64,000 nt of DNA from Oscillospiraceae bacterium (lineage in GTDB: Bacteria > Bacillota > Clostridia > Oscillospirales > Oscillospiraceae), in NCBI GenBank assembly GCA_009781515.1, contig WQXY01000007.1:1-64000 (forward strand), given 5' to 3'. The position numbers were made by a program, and so were the translations under genes. The notes beneath the pieces were generated by a model. It worked only from the letters and a program-made list of their open reading frames with translations. It did no database searches and was not told where the DNA came from. Positions 265 through 17,395 of this stretch are shown one piece after another. How positions within the stretch are numbered: the stretch's first letter is position 1; the number at the start of each line of letters is the position of its first letter.

Positions 265-1992
265 ATGAAAAAATGCCCAAAATGTCAGGCGACATTAGAA
301 GATGCAAGCATGTTTTGTGTCAACTGCGGTTCGCAGCTTCCACAGCAGCCTCCCGCACAGCCTATGCCACCATCGCAACCCGTGCAATACCAACAGCCTC
401 TTCCGCATCAGCCGCAGTATGCGCAACCGCAGCCACAGCAATACCCGCAGTACCCATACCCACCACCGCAACACAAAAAATCAAAGGCTGGGTTAATTCT
501 TGGTATTCTTATTCCCGTTTGCCTTTTAATAGCAGCGGCACTTGTCGTTTTCCTTGTCGACCCGTTCGATTTGTTAGGTAGCAACAATGACCCAAATGGA
601 TCTGCGGGCATGGCAACCGCAGACCCGAATGTGCAAAACACACCAACCCCGACACCCCCGCAAGACACCCCAAACGGAGCAGGAAATGACGGATTATATG
701 ATTTTGTAAATACACTGCCGAGCATTATAGCTGAAATTATTGATAAATATGGATATCAAGATTTTATTTTGAATAGATTAACAGACGGAATTGTTGACGA
801 CAATGTCAGCGAGATAATAATCGCTATGAAAGCAGATGCTCTCTTTGAACCCGGCAGTGCAACACTTACCTCGACAGGTGTGGGAGTTATGAGGGTTTTT
901 GGTGAAGCATTAGCTGACATTGACAACAATATCACTATTGCAGGACACACCGATAATGTTCCAATTATAACTGCAGATTTTTCTTCTAACTACGATTTGT
1001 CTTATGCAAGAGCCTTAAGTGTCGAAAAAATCTTTTTTGAGCAGATTGACAGCCGAAGGATAACTGTAATTGCTCATGGCGAATATGAGCCGATTGCTGA
1101 TAATAATACAGCAGAAGGACGTGCAGAAAACCGCCGGATTGAATTAATAATTAGTGTATCCCAACCACCGCTTGACCAAAAAGTCGGTGGAACGGTCATT
1201 GCCGTCGGCAGTAATGAATATGGTCAGCGCAATGTTTCCGAGTGGGCTGATATTATCGCAGTGTCTGCCGGATATACGCATACTGTGGGACTAAAGTCAG
1301 ACGGAACTGTAGTTGCCGTTGAAGCAAATGGTCAAGGTCAATGCGATGTTTTAGGGTGGCGGGATATAATAGAAGTTTCTGCAAGAGGAAATCACACCGT
1401 CGGCTTGAAATCGGACGGCACAGTTGTGGCAACCGGGCAAAATAATCACGGACAATGTGATGTTTCCGAGTGGCGGGATATTGTTGCAATTGCAGCGGGC
1501 TTGCAGCATACAGTAGGACTAAAACCTGACGGAACGGTCATAGCGATTGGCTGGAATTACATAGGACAATGCAATGTTTCAGAGTGGAGCGACATTGTTG
1601 CAATTGCTGCCGATGCTACTTTTACTGCAGGATTAAAATCCGACGGGACAGTTGTTTTAACAGGGAGCTTCCCATATCCGGAGCAGGTCGAATTGTGGCG
1701 AGATATTGTGGCGATTGATGCCGGGGTGTTGCAGCTTGCAGGTCTGAAATCCGACGGTACAGTTGTTGTGACGCAATGTCCAAATACCAATGAAATTGAT
1801 GTTTCCGAGTGGCGAAATATTATCGCGGTTTCCTGCGGGGGCAGGCAGATTGTTGGACTAAAATCTGACGGTACAGTTATTGCGTCCGGATTTGACGAAC
1901 ATGGTCAGTTAAATGTTACTGATTGGCGAAATATCATAGCAATATCAATGGGTTCGTCCCACACCGTCGCGATTGTCATCCCCAACTCGTAG
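265..1992 (+). CDS. Zinc-ribbon membrane protein with OmpA-like domain and RCC1-like repeats
   Basis: 575 residues; AGGAGG lies 8 bases before the ATG. In order: a CxxC...CxxC zinc ribbon (residues 4-25); a Pro/Gln/Tyr-rich linker (~27-72); one transmembrane helix (~75-97); a Thr/Pro-rich stretch; an OmpA/MotB-like domain (~193-298) with the AGHTDNVP and NRRIEL motifs that bind peptidoglycan in this family; and seven RCC1-like repeats of ~38 residues (~307-570), each with a 'GLKSDGTV' turn. This implies a cytoplasmic zinc ribbon, one membrane pass, and wall-facing OmpA and propeller-like domains. It is first of three tandem relatives. Function is unknown. OmpA-type domains in Gram-positive bacteria are usually MotB-like, but a stator role is unlikely because the helix lacks the MotB proton-binding Asp context. 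Confidence 0.85.
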   Translation: MKKCPKCQATLEDASMFCVNCGSQLPQQPPAQPMPPSQPVQYQQPLPHQPQYAQPQPQQYPQYPYPPPQHKKSKAGLILGILIPVCLLIAAALVVFLVDPFDLLGSNNDPNGSAGMATADPNVQNTPTPTPPQDTPNGAGNDGLYDFVNTLPSIIAEIIDKYGYQDFILNRLTDGIVDDNVSEIIIAMKADALFEPGSATLTSTGVGVMRVFGEALADIDNNITIAGHTDNVPIITADFSSNYDLSYARALSVEKIFFEQIDSRRITVIAHGEYEPIADNNTAEGRAENRRIELIISVSQPPLDQKVGGTVIAVGSNEYGQRNVSEWADIIAVSAGYTHTVGLKSDGTVVAVEANGQGQCDVLGWRDIIEVSARGNHTVGLKSDGTVVATGQNNHGQCDVSEWRDIVAIAAGLQHTVGLKPDGTVIAIGWNYIGQCNVSEWSDIVAIAADATFTAGLKSDGTVVLTGSFPYPEQVELWRDIVAIDAGVLQLAGLKSDGTVVVTQCPNTNEIDVSEWRNIIAVSCGGRQIVGLKSDGTVIASGFDEHGQLNVTDWRNIIAISMGSSHTVAIVIPNS

Positions 1993-2018
1993 CAACAAAT
2001 GCCGATGAGGACAACAAC

Positions 2019-2942
2019 ATGAAAATATGCCCGAAGTGTCTGGCAATATTGGAAAATACCGCCGAATTTTGTGCCGATTGCGGAGCACAGCTTCCGCCGC
2101 AGCCCCCGCAACCGGAGCCGTATTACCCGCACCAATCGCAGCGTTCACAGCCGGAGCAGCAACATATCCTGCCATATCAATATCAGCAACAAAATGCTAT
2201 AGCAAAATCAAAGGCAGGGCTAATACTCAGTGTTCTTATTCCTTTTGTACTAATAGCTGCCGCAACTGCAGTGCTGATTTTTATAGACCCGTTAAATAAC
2301 GAAAATGACCCCGACGGCATTGACATCGCAGCAACCGCAGACCCGAATGTGCAAAAAGCACCGACACAGGGTGATATATCGGTCACACAAGAATTTGCAT
2401 ACAGAGTTGGACTTGAGGAAGCACATGTAAGATATTTCTCCGCCTTAGAACAAGCAATAGATACGATTAAAAAAGAGCTTGGATATAAGAAATTTGATGA
2501 AATAGTGATGACAAGCAGTTTTTTTGGCACAAGTTCCGTATTAGAAACAACACTTCATTTGCAAACGGATGACCTCTTTGAAACGGAAAGTGCAACGCTT
2601 ACCCCGACAGGCGAGAAAGTTATGAGATATTTAAGTGCCGCGTTGGGTGATGTGGTCAGCAATATTCAAATTGCAGGACATACCGATAATGTGCCGATAC
2701 AGACTGCTGAGTTTTCGTCAAACTATGACTTATCTTATGCCCGAGTGTTAAATGTGGCAGATATATTTTATGAACATATGGACAGCCGAAACATAACTGT
2801 AAGTGCTTATGGCGAAAATGAACCGAAAACTATCAACAGCACCGAGGAGGGTCGCTCTGAAAACCGTAGGATAGAGTTAAGAATACAAGTAATTTACACA
2901 CAAGCATTAATAACGTCGCCTTATCAAATAATCGGAGGATAA
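2019..2942 (+). CDS. Zinc-ribbon membrane protein with C-terminal OmpA-like domain
   Basis: 307 residues from the ATG at 2019. The ORF track opens 96 bases earlier, inside the previous gene, but the zinc ribbon (MKICPKC...CADCG) and a GATGAGGA ribosome binding site fix this start. Layout: zinc ribbon 3-24; Pro/Gln-rich linker; transmembrane helix ~64-86; spacer; OmpA-like domain ~185-290 with AGHTDNVP and NRRIEL. It is closely related to the OmpA part of the preceding gene but lacks the RCC1-like repeats, so one probably arose from the other by domain gain or loss. It is separated from its neighbours by 26 and 4 bases, consistent with one operon. Probably a wall-anchored membrane protein; biological role unknown. 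Confidence 0.85.
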   Translation: MKICPKCLAILENTAEFCADCGAQLPPQPPQPEPYYPHQSQRSQPEQQHILPYQYQQQNAIAKSKAGLILSVLIPFVLIAAATAVLIFIDPLNNENDPDGIDIAATADPNVQKAPTQGDISVTQEFAYRVGLEEAHVRYFSALEQAIDTIKKELGYKKFDEIVMTSSFFGTSSVLETTLHLQTDDLFETESATLTPTGEKVMRYLSAALGDVVSNIQIAGHTDNVPIQTAEFSSNYDLSYARVLNVADIFYEHMDSRNITVSAYGENEPKTINSTEEGRSENRRIELRIQVIYTQALITSPYQIIGG

Positions 2943-2946
2943 AATA

Positions 2947-4011
2947 ATGAAACTATGTCCAAACTGTCAAACATCGGTAGATGATAATTACATGTTCTGC
3001 ATCGAATGTGGAGCACAGTTCCCCGTACCACAAGCGGAGCCGCCACCGCAAGCTGAAGCAGCACCGCCCGAGCCGCAATACGCTCCACCGCCACCGCCCG
3101 AACAGCCGCAATATGCCCCGCCACTGCCACAGGAAAATCTGCAATACCAACAACCACAACCGCAATATCCCGAGCAGCCACAATATGCGCAACCGCAGCC
3201 GCAGCAATACCCGCAGTACCCATACCCTCCGCCACCGCCGCCCCGCAAAAAGTCAAAGGTTGGCTTAATCCTCGGTATTGTTATTCCCGTTGTCTTGTTA
3301 GCTGCCGCAGCTGCAGTTGTATTCTTTGTAGACCCGTTTGATTGGTTAAATAACGACAATGACCCCAACGCTCATGTCGGCATACCAACCACAGACCCGA
3401 ATATACAAAATACACCAACGCCAACGTCGACACCAACACCTACACTACCGCCCGACACACCGCCGCCAACCACCGCCATAATAGATGACGGCATTAAGGT
3501 CAACTGGGAACTGCTTCAAATGATAGGCAAAACAAATGCGGACTTGATAGCCGTCAACGGCGGTCGTGCTCCCTCTTATGTAGCCGACGGCGGAGCGTGG
3601 GTAGACTATACGGAAAGCGGAGCAATCTTCCCCGTCCATTTTTACTTTGACATGGACCATGATACATTTATAGATATTATTTATGACAATAGGAGCGGGT
3701 TGGATTGGAACACAAATATATGGCCGTCCAATGCCACTGTTTTTGCAGTGCTCCTTTGGAGAGAACAAGCCTTTACGGCATTTGAACATGACAAACCAAT
3801 CACTTATGATGCTCTTTGTGAAGTCTTCGAAGTAGACCCGGGATTAGAATTTTTTCCCGAGCACGATCAAGGTCCGGACTCATATGGTGCAGACGTTTGG
3901 ACAAGTTGGTTCGTATTTGACCGCTACATGATGTACACAGCTTTTGAAAGCAAAAATAATGAGATGGTTCTTTTGGAAGCATGGATAGCCGAGGATCAAG
4001 GCTGGTGGTAA
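2947..4011 (+). CDS. Zinc-ribbon, Pro/Gln-rich single-pass membrane protein with unknown C-terminal domain
   Basis: 354 residues; CGGAGG lies upstream of the ATG and the gene starts 4 bases after the previous stop. Zinc ribbon CPNC...CIEC (4-23), a long Pro/Gln/Tyr linker (~27-100), transmembrane helix (~102-125), a Thr/Pro-rich stalk, then a Trp-rich globular region (~165-354) that I do not recognise. The N-terminal half is nearly interchangeable with the two upstream proteins while the C-terminal domain differs, so the set looks like one membrane scaffold carrying different external modules. The last 16 bases overlap the convergent XRE gene. Confidence 0.8.
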   Translation: MKLCPNCQTSVDDNYMFCIECGAQFPVPQAEPPPQAEAAPPEPQYAPPPPPEQPQYAPPLPQENLQYQQPQPQYPEQPQYAQPQPQQYPQYPYPPPPPPRKKSKVGLILGIVIPVVLLAAAAAVVFFVDPFDWLNNDNDPNAHVGIPTTDPNIQNTPTPTSTPTPTLPPDTPPPTTAIIDDGIKVNWELLQMIGKTNADLIAVNGGRAPSYVADGGAWVDYTESGAIFPVHFYFDMDHDTFIDIIYDNRSGLDWNTNIWPSNATVFAVLLWREQAFTAFEHDKPITYDALCEVFEVDPGLEFFPEHDQGPDSYGADVWTSWFVFDRYMMYTAFESKNNEMVLLEAWIAEDQGWW

Positions 4012-4781
4012 AAAACTCCCCGCATATGCTCTGCCATAACCATAATTTCATCATATAAAGCATTATAAAGCTCTAACCAAGTGTCATAAACTATCTCAGA
4101 CACACCGTGCCCGCGCTCTAACGGCTGAAAATACTCATCAACGGGCAAGCGGAATAATCTGGTGGAGACACCGGTTTTTCGTAGTTCCAACTCGTAAACA
4201 TGTTCCACCCCGCCCAATGTAAGTTTGGGGGTTATAAAGAGCCTGATTGAATATTCTTCAAGCGAAGGATACCTGTACATAACCACCCCCGCACCAACAT
4301 CACCGTTGAAAACCAAATACGGCGGTTGATTTACTTGAATTAAATAATCGCTGTCCGGGGCAGCAAAAAATGCACCTGTCCAGCCGTTTTCATTAACAAA
4401 CCCGTCCGGTGCTTTAGGAGTGTCTAAAAACGGCGAAAATGCGTGGTGCATATAATAAAACCAGATCGCATTATATATTCCAAAAGCCAAAACAATTAAA
4501 GCAGCTACCCCAACGGCTGCTTTTTTTGCACTTTTTGTTTTCCACCACTTTTCCGAAGCAGAGGAACTATCTATTTGCTTTTCTGATATCAGCTGATCAA
4601 TGCTGACCCCAAGTGCGCAGGCAAGTGACGGGAGTTGTCTTATATCAGGTAAACCACCGCCGCTTTCCCATTTTGAAACAGCCTTGTTTGTTACAGATAA
4701 AATATCTGCAAGCTGCTGCTGTGTCAGCCCCTGCGACTTTCTCAGCGCTGCTATTTTATTTCCGATAATTAATGTATCCAT
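3996..4781 (-). CDS. XRE-family HTH transcriptional regulator with a membrane helix
   Basis: 261 residues. An N-terminal helix-turn-helix of the Cro/CI type (~7-62, with LTQQQLADILSVTNKAVSKWE) is followed by a short basic linker, one transmembrane helix (~85-108) and an external domain of ~150 residues with no recognised fold. The layout suggests a one-component sensor that binds DNA from the membrane. It overlaps the end of the third zinc-ribbon gene by 16 bases and follows a paralogue 12 bases upstream, so the two are likely co-transcribed. Regulation of the adjacent zinc-ribbon genes is a reasonable inference but is not shown. Confidence 0.8.
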   Translation of the reverse strand: MDTLIIGNKIAALRKSQGLTQQQLADILSVTNKAVSKWESGGGLPDIRQLPSLACALGVSIDQLISEKQIDSSSASEKWWKTKSAKKAAVGVAALIVLAFGIYNAIWFYYMHHAFSPFLDTPKAPDGFVNENGWTGAFFAAPDSDYLIQVNQPPYLVFNGDVGAGVVMYRYPSLEEYSIRLFITPKLTLGGVEHVYELELRKTGVSTRLFRLPVDEYFQPLERGHGVSEIVYDTWLELYNALYDEIMVMAEHMRGVFYHQP

Positions 4782-4793
4782 TCTAATAACCCT

Positions 4794-5627
4794 CTATCGG
4801 ATTTTGGCGGGCAAAAAAGCATCCTCGCCAAAAAATTCCTTCATATCCGCAAAAAACTTCATAATTGTATCGTAATATCTCTCGTGTTGCTCCAACCATA
4901 TATTGTAGAATTCGTCGGAGTCACCCGGAGACTTTCCGAGAGGTTCTCCATTCATATCAACGGCGCTGTAGCGCCGCATAGGCGCCGAACCCCAAAATTC
5001 AACATGAACTTCGTTAAAATCTGTAATACCTAAGGCATAGGTCCAATTGCCTCCTCTTCGCATAAATATTGTCAAGCTAAGTGAATGGTCGATATCATCG
5101 TTAGGGTGCGGATGCGTAGTGATGTTAATGTTGCCGCCAAAGTCTAATCTTCGAGGCATATTAATTGTGTAAACCTTCCTGCTTTCACTGTAATCCATAT
5201 ATTCGTATACAATCAGTCTGTTGCTGTGCATTACACTCCGGTCAGGTATCGCCTGCAGATTTTTGTTATTTAAGAATGGGTCAAAAGTATCTGATATATA
5301 TCTGTCCCATAGGACATTTGCAATCACAAGCACAATCAATAAGACAGAGAGCAAAATAAGCGCTGCTGCCATTACTCTCCGCTTATTAAAAACAGGAGTG
5401 CGGCTTCCTTGCTTTTCTTTGTGAGTTTCCGCCATTATGTCATCAACAGATACGCTCAAAGCGGATGCAAGCGCAGGGAGTATTGCAGTGTCCGGCAATC
5501 CGCCGCCACTTTCCCATTTAGACACTGTTTTGTTTGAAACAAACAGCTTATCGGCAAGTTCCTGCTGAGTTAAACCAAGTAATTTCCTCTGCTTGATTAT
5601 TTTCTCTCCGACTATCCGGGCGTCCAT
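4794..5627 (-). CDS. XRE-family HTH regulator with membrane helix, paralogue of the next gene
   Basis: 277 residues from the ATG at 5627. The track uses a GTG 9 bases earlier, but AGGTG sits six bases before this ATG and the paralogue starts at the equivalent residue (MDTLIIG / MDARIVG). HTH ~7-60, transmembrane helix ~85-108, then an external domain rich in aromatic and charged residues. The HTH core SKWESGGGLPD is identical to that of the downstream paralogue, while the external domains are diverged. This suggests duplication followed by change of the sensed signal. Confidence 0.8.
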   Translation of the reverse strand: MDARIVGEKIIKQRKLLGLTQQELADKLFVSNKTVSKWESGGGLPDTAILPALASALSVSVDDIMAETHKEKQGSRTPVFNKRRVMAAALILLSVLLIVLVIANVLWDRYISDTFDPFLNNKNLQAIPDRSVMHSNRLIVYEYMDYSESRKVYTINMPRRLDFGGNINITTHPHPNDDIDHSLSLTIFMRRGGNWTYALGITDFNEVHVEFWGSAPMRRYSAVDMNGEPLGKSPGDSDEFYNIWLEQHERYYDTIMKFFADMKEFFGEDAFLPAKIR

Positions 5628-5701
5628 ATTTTGCACCTGCCTCTCTAAGCAGATGATAACCCGCGCCCTATAAAAAGTAAACCTATAATCGGATTTAAGG
5701 G

Positions 5702-5723: not shown

Positions 5724-7025
5724 CTAATACTTCTCAAAAAACTCCGTAAGCCGACGTGCGATATCGGTTATTTGCTCTATTGTATAGTTTTCAACACCCT
5801 CATACCAACTGAACGTCGTGCTATTATTATACGGCGAAATAGTGCCGTCAGCATTAACCTTTGCCACTGAATTCAGAGTCCATATATAAGGAATTTTATC
5901 AAGAAGATTAAATATAACTATGTACCGATTGCCCGGCTCGAACAGCCATGTTGTGTACGCCTGTGCTTCAATAACGCTGCCGTTTTCCCACTGCCATAAA
6001 TAATCATAATTGCGCTCTTCGTAGTATTCATTATTTTGAGCGTAAAATTCCAAAAGCTTATCCACCTGTGCTTTATCCGGTCTTACTAAAATGTTTTCTA
6101 TCGCAGCAACGACATCCTTCCCGTTTGTTTCGGGTAAAATAGTAACATCAAGTACTGTGTTCCAAATTTCTGATACAAAGGCTGCAAAACGGGAAGTAGC
6201 AAGCTCAAAATCTTCATCTTCAGTTATGTTGACAAGTGCATAAGCAAGCTGACTTGCAGGCTTGCCGTCATATTTATTAAATCCCGAAAGCCATGTATGT
6301 GAAAAAATTAACCCCTCATCATCAACCTCAAAGAGAACATCTGAGTCAGTTGTATACCAGCTGCTTCCTTGCTTCCAAAGTGGCAATATATAAACACCGC
6401 CCTCTCGCAGAAACATAATAGACCCGCTGCACCCGCACTTGATTATGCTTTCCCACTCTTTCCCACTTATATTATCAACAACGCCGACCAGTTTGCCTTG
6501 GTCAATCGATAAACTTTCGGGTATCGCTCTGTCGCTTCGTATGACCGAAAGAACTTTTAGGGTTGATGTTTGCATATCATAAATATCGGTATAATACTGT
6601 GATTTTTGTTTATTTGTCCACTCTTCGATAGCTGTAACCTGAACAAAAGCAAATGCGTGAGGTTCAAACTCTCTGTCAAAAAAATCGATGAGTGTTCTTG
6701 GCATCCAACGCCTCGAGTCTTTCAATACATTCGGAAAATTAATTTCTTCATGCTCGCTCACGCACGGCTCTGCTATAGGCAGTCCGGTAAATTCGGGGAT
6801 ATAATCGGAGCCCAAATCTATATCACCGCCGGACAAGCTGCTCCAAGTCATAAGTCCAAAAATACAGAGGAAACAAGCTGCTGCCCCGCAAACGCTCGAG
6901 ATAACAGCCCTTTTTATTTTTCGCCTTGTGCGAAGATGTTCTTTAGCATTAATTGCCTCGTCAATTAAGTTATCATCAATCCCGTTGATATTTTGTTCTA
7001 TTATTAAATCTATTGTAGTGCTCAT
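5724..7025 (-). CDS. Single-pass membrane protein, putative anti-sigma partner of the ECF sigma factor
   Basis: 433 residues. A ~37-residue basic cytoplasmic N-terminus is followed by one transmembrane helix (~40-60) and a long external domain (~370 residues) without recognised motifs. The start overlaps the stop of the ECF sigma gene as ATGA, the usual sigma/anti-sigma arrangement, which is the main basis for the call. The zinc-binding HxxxCxxC anti-sigma motif is absent, so it would be a non-ZAS type. A membrane protein merely controlled by the sigma factor is the alternative. Confidence 0.65.
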   Translation of the reverse strand: MSTTIDLIIEQNINGIDDNLIDEAINAKEHLRTRRKIKRAVISSVCGAAACFLCIFGLMTWSSLSGGDIDLGSDYIPEFTGLPIAEPCVSEHEEINFPNVLKDSRRWMPRTLIDFFDREFEPHAFAFVQVTAIEEWTNKQKSQYYTDIYDMQTSTLKVLSVIRSDRAIPESLSIDQGKLVGVVDNISGKEWESIIKCGCSGSIMFLREGGVYILPLWKQGSSWYTTDSDVLFEVDDEGLIFSHTWLSGFNKYDGKPASQLAYALVNITEDEDFELATSRFAAFVSEIWNTVLDVTILPETNGKDVVAAIENILVRPDKAQVDKLLEFYAQNNEYYEERNYDYLWQWENGSVIEAQAYTTWLFEPGNRYIVIFNLLDKIPYIWTLNSVAKVNADGTISPYNNSTTFSWYEGVENYTIEQITDIARRLTEFFEKY

Positions 7026-7603
7026 AGTTCTATTCCTCTCTTAATCAGGTAATCCTTTAACTTGTTTCTCGTTCTGTGCAAGGATACCTTCACTTTGCTT
7101 TCTGTGAAACTAAACATCTGCGAAATTTGTGCGACCCCGTCGCCGAGAACATATTTTCTGAGAAAAATGTTTCTGTCATTAAAGCTTAAGCTTCTCAGAA
7201 AGCTGTTAATATGTGTTATTGTTTCTTTGTTTTGGAGAGCCGCTTCCACGCCGACATCAGACAAAATAAAGTCCTCTACCTCGCTTAAAGGTATGTTCAT
7301 ATCGACGCTTCTTTTTGATGATGTGTTATAACGAAACTTTTTCAGTGAAATGTTTCGCGCGATTTTACAGATATACGAAGATAGCTTCTGAGGTTTTTCC
7401 GGAGGAACATTGTTCCATACAGCAAGATAAGTATCATTAATACATTCCTCAATATCCTCGTCACAAGACAATATGTTGCCTGCGACATGTCTGCAAAGAC
7501 TGCCGTATTTTTCCTTGAGCTTTATTAACGCATCATCGGAGCGTGACCATAATAAATCTATAATGTCACTATCGTTATTGCCTTTAACCGCTCTCACCAC
7601 CAT
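7022..7603 (-). CDS. ECF-type RNA polymerase sigma factor
   Basis: 193 residues. Sigma-70 region 2 (~13-85, including DIEECINDTYLAVWNN) and region 4 (~130-185, with an FTESKVKVSLHRTRNKL recognition helix) are present, while regions 1 and 3 are absent, as in ECF sigma factors. It would redirect RNA polymerase to a small regulon in response to an envelope signal. It is followed by an overlapping membrane protein that may hold it inactive. A GTAACC-type element upstream suggests autoregulation. No strong ribosome binding site precedes the ATG at 7603, so a slightly later GTG start is possible. Confidence 0.88.
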   Translation of the reverse strand: MVVRAVKGNNDSDIIDLLWSRSDDALIKLKEKYGSLCRHVAGNILSCDEDIEECINDTYLAVWNNVPPEKPQKLSSYICKIARNISLKKFRYNTSSKRSVDMNIPLSEVEDFILSDVGVEAALQNKETITHINSFLRSLSFNDRNIFLRKYVLGDGVAQISQMFSFTESKVKVSLHRTRNKLKDYLIKRGIEL

Positions 7604-16369: not shown

Positions 16370-17395
16370 ATGGCAAAAATATGTAGTAAATGTGCAGGTG
16401 AATTACCGGATAGTGCAAAAATATGCGGCATGTGCGGTGAGAAGTTACCTGAAAACGTCAGCATAGCACAGCAGCCGTTTGGAGCAGAGCCGCCGCCACC
16501 GCAGGCATACCCGCCGCCGTTTGCGGAGCAGCCACAACCACCGCAGCAGCAGTATGCGCCGTCGCCGTTTGCAGAACAACCACCGCAACAGCAATACGCA
16601 CAGCCGCAGCAACAGTACGTGCCGCCACCACCCCAGCCGTATCAACAACCCGGGCAGGCATACCCGCCGCCACCGCCTCAGCCGCAATATCCGCAACAAC
16701 AGCAATATGCACCGCAAGCGTACCCGCAGCAGCAGCCGTATGTGCAGCAGCCATACCCGCAGACGCAGCAGTACACACCGCAACCGCAGTATTATGCGCC
16801 AATTAGAACAAAAAAACCGAGCAGCCCCGGCAAGGTTATCGTGACGCTTCTTCTGATTGCTGTGATTTTAGGTGGAGCAGGTTTTGCTGTATATTATTTC
16901 TTCTTTAACACCAACACCCCGGAGGGAGTGGCAACAATTTGGATTGAAGCTGCGTTAAAGGGCGACATAGAAAAATGCATAAACCATATGGCTCTTGGCG
17001 ATGAAATACTCGAAATGACAATACGAGAAGGACTGGCTTCATCAAAACATGATGCACTAAAGCAAATAGAAGACAGCATGTTTGGCGATATAGGCAGCAC
17101 ATTAATCAGCGTAGGTATGAGCTTATTGGATATTAAAGTTGGCGTTTCCACAAACTCAGAGCTTTCGGCTATAAGGCATGAGGGTGTGCTGAGCGAATTG
17201 AGAGCCTTAGGGAACGCCGGAGACACCATAATGAGAAATGCAACAATGGCATTATGTGATGATATTACGAATATTCATCAAATCGGAATTGGTGTGTCTA
17301 TCTTTGGGTTTGACCTCCCCGTCGACCAGCTTCTGACACTTTATGTCGCTAAGGTAAACGGAAAATGGCTTGTACTGCCGATTGGTTTTTATTAA
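16370..17395 (+). CDS. Zinc-ribbon, Pro/Gln-rich single-pass membrane protein (fourth family member)
   Basis: 341 residues with AGGAGGGG before the ATG. CSKC...CGMC zinc ribbon (4-24), a very long Pro/Gln/Tyr/Ala linker (~40-142) encoded by imperfect repeats, transmembrane helix (~153-173), and a C-terminal domain (~180-341) beginning TPEGVATIWIEAALKGD, which resembles the small DUF4878/lumazine-binding type external domains. It is separate from the cluster at the left end but has the same architecture and P/Q composition. It is divergent from a hybrid kinase. Function unknown. Confidence 0.8.
   Translation: MAKICSKCAGELPDSAKICGMCGEKLPENVSIAQQPFGAEPPPPQAYPPPFAEQPQPPQQQYAPSPFAEQPPQQQYAQPQQQYVPPPPQPYQQPGQAYPPPPPQPQYPQQQQYAPQAYPQQQPYVQQPYPQTQQYTPQPQYYAPIRTKKPSSPGKVIVTLLLIAVILGGAGFAVYYFFFNTNTPEGVATIWIEAALKGDIEKCINHMALGDEILEMTIREGLASSKHDALKQIEDSMFGDIGSTLISVGMSLLDIKVGVSTNSELSAIRHEGVLSELRALGNAGDTIMRNATMALCDDITNIHQIGIGVSIFGFDLPVDQLLTLYVAKVNGKWLVLPIGFY

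What the first reader, a model, noticed from the sequence alone, without database searches (positions are those of the whole stretch)
265..4011. Tandem zinc-ribbon/PQ-linker/TM scaffold with exchangeable outer domains, including OmpA plus RCC1-like repeats
Three adjacent genes, and a fourth at 16.4 kb, share the same cytoplasmic zinc ribbon, Pro/Gln linker and helix but differ outside. The OmpA-like domains keep peptidoglycan-binding residues and one protein adds seven RCC1-like repeats. This combination in a Gram-positive-type cell is unusual and may link wall state to a cytoplasmic partner.
Basis: partly seen in the sequence, partly recalled or inferred. Interest (0 to 1): 0.6.

Follow-up and report, generated by a model that had tools for sequence, protein, structure and literature searches.

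The report
Wall-anchored zinc-ribbon membrane proteins
A three-gene cluster encodes membrane proteins that share one inner half (a small zinc-binding tip, a flexible tail and one membrane helix) but carry different outer parts, including a cell-wall clip and a ring-shaped binding domain; the general design is common in related bacteria, and only this particular mix of outer parts is new.

Summary
g1 (265-1992), g2 (2019-2942) and g3 (2947-4011) form a tight tandem cluster whose N-terminal halves (zinc ribbon, Pro/Gln linker, one helix, acidic/PT spacer) are homologous down to DNA level (72-76%). g1 and g2 carry a confident MotB-type OmpA domain that keeps the three peptidoglycan-contacting residues. 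g1 adds seven 38-residue RCC1_2 repeats, predicted with high confidence to form a closed propeller closest to BLIP-II (TM-score 0.86). g4 (16370-17395) shares only the generic layout. Charge bias predicts ribbon in, ectodomain out.

The scaffold is not new: N-terminal ribbon + TM + variable ectodomain is widespread in Firmicutes (TcaA, YdjG type), and this genome has at least 11 single-pass examples. The OmpA domain is MotB-like, so OmpA in a flagellated monoderm is unremarkable. What is unusual is ribbon-TM-OmpA: no other case in about 1,190 searches of related Firmicute genomes. Ribbon-TM-RCC1 does recur (L051). Real domain exchange is shown by a same-genus genome in which g3's ectodomain is fused to MORN repeats on the same kind of scaffold.

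Best reading: wall-tethered membrane proteins with interchangeable binding heads. Signalling to a cytoplasmic partner is possible but untested.

The parts
265..1992 (+). g1: ribbon - PQ linker - TM - OmpA - seven-bladed RCC1/BLIP-II-type propeller (575 aa)
271..339 (+). g1 zinc ribbon (CPKC..CVNC), residues 3-25
   Evidence: Pfam PF13240 4.7e-6
496..558 (+). g1 transmembrane helix, residues 78-98; +3 on the N side, -3 on the C side
   Evidence: hydropathy/charge; helix 75-97 in model
841..1134 (+). g1 MotB-type OmpA domain, residues 193-290; D230, N242, R249 match peptidoglycan-contact residues
   Evidence: PF00691 7e-14
1186..1977 (+). g1 seven 38-residue RCC1_2 / BLIP-II-type blades, residues 308-571
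2019..2942 (+). g2: ribbon - PQ linker - TM - OmpA (307 aa)
2223..2285 (+). g2 transmembrane helix, residues 69-89
2574..2867 (+). g2 MotB-type OmpA domain, residues 186-283; D223, N235, R242 kept
   Evidence: PF00691 7e-13
2947..4011 (+). g3: ribbon - PQ linker - TM - ectodomain of no known family (354 aa)
3463..4008 (+). g3 ectodomain; relatives in one same-genus genome sit behind a MORN repeat on the same scaffold
16370..17395 (+). g4: ribbon - long PQ linker - TM - different ectodomain; same layout, not a recent duplicate of g1-g3

Best explanation
g1-g3 are single-pass, N-in/C-out membrane proteins made by tandem duplication of one zinc-ribbon/PQ-linker/TM scaffold followed by change of the outer half. 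In g1 and g2 a MotB-type OmpA domain clamps the protein to peptidoglycan on the outer face of the membrane. g1 then presents a BLIP-II-type seven-bladed propeller as a protein- or ligand-binding head in the wall zone, while g3 presents an unrelated head. The cytoplasmic ribbon on its flexible linker is most likely a protein-binding or self-association knob, as assumed for TcaA/YdjG-type proteins. Shown by sequence or model: homology, domain identity, intact peptidoglycan-contact residues, propeller fold, charge bias. Inferred: topology, peptidoglycan binding, co-transcription, the head as a binding module, any task of the ribbon.
For: Pfam OmpA/RCC1_2/ribbon; DNA-level homology of the scaffold; AlphaFold2 with OmpA and propeller blocks mostly at pLDDT 85-98; Foldseek top hits BLIP-II, E 5.5e-24, TM-score 0.86 to target, and profile hit to BLIP-II E 5.6e-20; closest OmpA structures MotB/TssL-type peptidoglycan binders, E 2e-15; D/N/R equivalent to PorE Asp576/Asn584/Arg591, which hydrogen-bond peptidoglycan (PMC7192894); positive-inside charges in all four proteins; no Omp85 in the genome, so probably monoderm; g3 ectodomain re-used with a MORN repeat in G013; many ribbon-TM proteins with other ectodomains in this genome and other Firmicutes.
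Against: No experiment and no orthologue of the full g1 or g2 architecture elsewhere, so no evolutionary conservation to prove that the combination is selected. Ribbon scores of g2 and g4 are below Pfam's cut-off. Co-transcription rests on spacing only, and the contig starts 264 bp upstream of g1. The relative placement of OmpA and propeller is not determined (pTM 0.56).
Confidence: 0.62

Rival explanations
1. Wall-state receptor: ligand or tension sensed by OmpA/propeller outside is passed through the helix to the zinc ribbon, which recruits or releases a cytoplasmic partner.
For: Architecture spans wall to cytoplasm; ribbon-TM proteins are linked with envelope stress in Firmicutes (YdjG next to PspA, PMC11237479; TcaA and glycopeptide response, PMC10611510).
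Against: No conserved signalling gene is shown to be linked; the nearby ECF sigma and HTH genes are on the other strand in separate units; a long disordered PQ linker is poor for passing a conformational change; no co-conservation could be tested.
Confidence: 0.22
2. The propeller works as BLIP-II does: it binds and blocks a serine beta-lactamase or a penicillin-binding protein near the membrane.
For: BLIP-II is the closest solved structure by profile and by fold; location near the wall fits such a target.
Against: Only 26-27% identity over a repeat fold that binds many unrelated partners; BLIP-II contact residues were not compared; related RCC1 proteins with no predicted membrane helix also occur.
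Confidence: 0.06
3. g1 and g2 act in the flagellar stator, as extra MotB-like anchors or decoys.
For: OmpA domain is MotB-type; the genome has MotA/MotB and flagellins.
Against: g1/g2 lack the MotB helix/plug; their OmpA domains form their own pair (support 0.996) and do not group with the genome's own MotB; not near flagellar genes.
Confidence: 0.04
4. Recent duplicates under little constraint: a lineage-specific expansion without a distinct job for each copy.
For: Full architecture seen only in this genome; blade 5 has a one-residue deletion and is diverged.
Against: Open frames and OmpA contact residues are intact at 62% domain identity, so constraint has lasted well past duplication.
Confidence: 0.08

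Closest known systems
TcaA (Firmicute zinc-ribbon membrane protein, PF22813/PF22820, NF053815)
   Same: N-terminal zinc ribbon, one membrane helix, multi-domain ectodomain; present in the scaffold survey (L097, E 8.6e-20); the RCC1-bearing relative L051 matches TcaA's N-terminal part at 1.5e-5.
   Different: No TcaA ectodomain in g1-g4; long PQ linker; OmpA/propeller instead.
Flagellar stator protein MotB/MotS and TssL-type OmpA domains
   Same: Same OmpA domain type with intact peptidoglycan-contact residues.
   Different: No MotB plug or helix, no MotA partner nearby; N-terminal ribbon instead.
BLIP-II / RCC1_2 propellers
   Same: Seven short blades, closest by profile and by fold.
   Different: Membrane-tethered, fused behind OmpA; BLIP-II is a secreted beta-lactamase inhibitor.
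YdjG and ZnR-PspC membrane proteins (PMC11237479)
   Same: Cytoplasmic-type zinc ribbon joined to a TM segment and another domain.
   Different: NTF2-like/YpeB-related or PspC domain; linked to PspA, not seen here.

Membership tests
OmpA C-terminal domain family (PF00691) | Full-length model match above cut-off | tested here: met
   g1 52.4 and g2 49.2 bits, cut-off 27.2, positions 1-98/98
OmpA C-terminal domain family (PF00691) | Asp/Asn/Arg peptidoglycan-contact residues | tested here: met
   g1 D230/N242/R249, g2 D223/N235/R242
OmpA C-terminal domain family (PF00691) | Binds peptidoglycan | not testable with these tools
   needs binding assay
MotB stator protein | MotB N-terminal helix/plug with MotA gene beside it | tested here: not met
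   g1/g2 have a ribbon and PQ linker instead; real MotA/MotB lie on contig C2
RCC1/BLIP-II propeller | Seven short blades closing a ring | tested here: met
   PF13540 7e-28; pLDDT about 95; BLIP-II TM-score 0.86
BLIP-II (beta-lactamase inhibitor) | Inhibits class A beta-lactamases through contact residues | not tested
   contact-residue paper not held
TcaA | N-terminal ribbon + TM | tested here: met
TcaA | TcaA ectodomains (PF22813, PF22820) | tested here: not met
   no match at E<=1 in g1-g4

The most novel reading that the evidence does not exclude
A genus-level family of membrane proteins that keeps one cytoplasmic zinc-ribbon tip and swaps wall-binding and partner-binding heads (OmpA, BLIP-II propeller, MORN, others), with g1 the first wall-clamped BLIP-II-type receptor that reports wall or surface ligands to the cytoplasm.
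Probability: 0.2. Interest if true: 0.55.

Novelty: new variant of a known kind. Interest (0 to 1): 0.36.

Why it matters
The general kind, a zinc ribbon on the inside of a single-pass Firmicute membrane protein, is common yet poorly understood: what the ribbon does is unknown in most cases. A set of duplicates with the same inner half and different, recognisable outer domains (one a likely peptidoglycan clamp) gives a natural comparison for asking what the shared cytoplasmic part binds and whether the outer head changes its behaviour.

Tried and rejected
Looked for orthologues of the ribbon-TM-OmpA fusion in 60 relatives plus 401 family, 394 order and 399 phylum genomes (the sets overlap a little): none; all OmpA matches inspected outside this genome in these searches were MotB-like. 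Tested whether the OmpA domain comes from the genome's own MotB: tree says no. Structure of the g3 ectodomain: pLDDT 42.5, uninformative, not searched further. g3 and g4 ectodomains are not alike. Paper with BLIP-II contact residues not held. Promoter scan not informative; terminator-like sites were above the shuffle mean but not interpretable.

Full report
1. Observation. The three genes exist where stated. g1 265-1992, g2 2019-2942 (the listed ORF starts earlier at a TTG, but ATG 2019 follows AGGACAACAAC and begins the homologous protein) and g3 2947-4011 run in one direction with gaps of 26 and 4 bases. Pfam identifies the ribbon in g1 and g3 above cut-off and in g2 and g4 below it, OmpA over the full model in g1 and g2 (7e-14, 7e-13), and RCC1_2 repeats in g1 (7e-28). 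The scaffold halves are alike in DNA (72-76%), so duplication, not chance or mere composition, made them. g4 is different: beyond 25 ribbon residues it shares only a PQ-rich linker and layout.

2. Topology. Each protein has one strong hydrophobic helix after the linker; the 15 residues before it carry net +2 to +4 and those after it -1 to -5. This predicts ribbon inside, ectodomain outside. No Omp85 was found in the genome (90% complete), in keeping with a monoderm cell.

3. OmpA domains. The closest solved structures are MotB, MotS, PomB and TssL-type peptidoglycan-binding domains. The three side chains that hydrogen-bond peptidoglycan in PorE (Asp576, Asn584, Arg591; PMC7192894) have counterparts D230/N242/R249 in g1 and D223/N235/R242 in g2, with the N-to-R spacing kept. 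The genome has a true MotA/MotB pair (L047) and six flagellin matches, so the fold as such is expected in this cell. In a tree of 42 OmpA domains g1 and g2 pair with support 0.996 and do not fall with the genome's own MotB; their source is unresolved.

4. Propeller. The repeats are 38 residues long, seven in number, 37-66% identical except blade 5, whose low ungapped identity (14-27%) reflects a one-residue deletion. AlphaFold2 on a 49-sequence alignment gives pLDDT mostly 85-98 for both OmpA and propeller, low confidence in the linkers and pTM 0.56. Foldseek ranks BLIP-II first (E 5.5e-24, TM-score 0.86 normalised to BLIP-II, 26-27% identity) before eukaryotic RCC1 proteins. A profile of the bacterial repeats also finds BLIP-II first (5.6e-20). 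RCC1/BLIP-II propellers are recognised as a mostly bacterial, repeatedly amplified group (PMC9218822).

5. Scaffold elsewhere. In this genome ribbons occur at 16 places at E<=1e-3; at least 11 single-pass proteins share the layout (g1-g4; L037 two; L038 two; L043 with a Peptidase_C26 ectodomain; L046; L202 with a degenerate ribbon). Outside, the same layout is found across Lachnospiraceae, Lactobacillaceae, Ruminococcaceae and others, with LRR, TcaA and unassigned ectodomains. A relative from the same order (L051) has ribbon + TM + repeats + RCC1. Direct evidence for exchange: in same-genus genome G013 two proteins carry ribbon(s), PQ-rich linker, TM, a MORN-like repeat (1e-4, just under cut-off) and then a relative of g3's ectodomain (26-30%).

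6. Rarity of the fusion. With g2 as query, no other genome among 401 of the family, 394 of the order and 399 of the phylum has a match that covers both ribbon/TM and OmpA; every OmpA match inspected from these searches is MotB-like. A distant fusion with a diverged ribbon could be missed, and matches beyond the fetched loci were judged by their coordinates only.

7. Mechanism. Best supported: peptidoglycan-clamped, membrane-anchored proteins with exchangeable heads. That the ribbon binds a cytoplasmic partner is plausible by analogy with ribbon proteins of envelope stress systems (PMC11237479) and TcaA (PMC10611510), but nothing here tests it.

8. Verdict.

Noticed in passing
L205:1492-2979 and L206:1486-3123 (minus strand, genome G013): Same-genus proteins with ribbon(s), PQ-rich linker, TM, a MORN-like repeat and a g3-like ectodomain; direct evidence of outer-domain exchange.
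   Followed up: partly
L043:5549-6724 (minus strand, contig C29): Ribbon + PQ/P linker + TM + Peptidase_C26 (glutamine amidotransferase-like) domain, 3e-39, predicted outside the cell, an odd place for this enzyme fold.
   Followed up: no
L050:943-2574 and L053 (519-aa frame): Proteins with no predicted membrane helix, with a different N-terminal ribbon, a repeat-like middle and RCC1 repeats; the propeller also travels with ribbons inside cells.
   Followed up: no
L039:1195-3291 (contig C4): Probable lipoprotein or secreted protein joining RCC1_2 repeats to BspA-type leucine-rich repeats.
   Followed up: no
window 3996-5636, minus strand: Two adjacent paralogous HTH_3 regulators with one membrane helix and an ectodomain, converging on g3.
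   Followed up: no
window 5724-7603, minus strand: ECF sigma factor followed by a membrane protein of no family, possibly its anti-sigma factor.
   Followed up: no
L037:9676-10914 (minus strand, contig C36): TM + RCC1 propeller protein without ribbon inside a cluster of ribbon membrane proteins; its repeats are among the closest in this genome to those of g1 (49%).
   Followed up: partly
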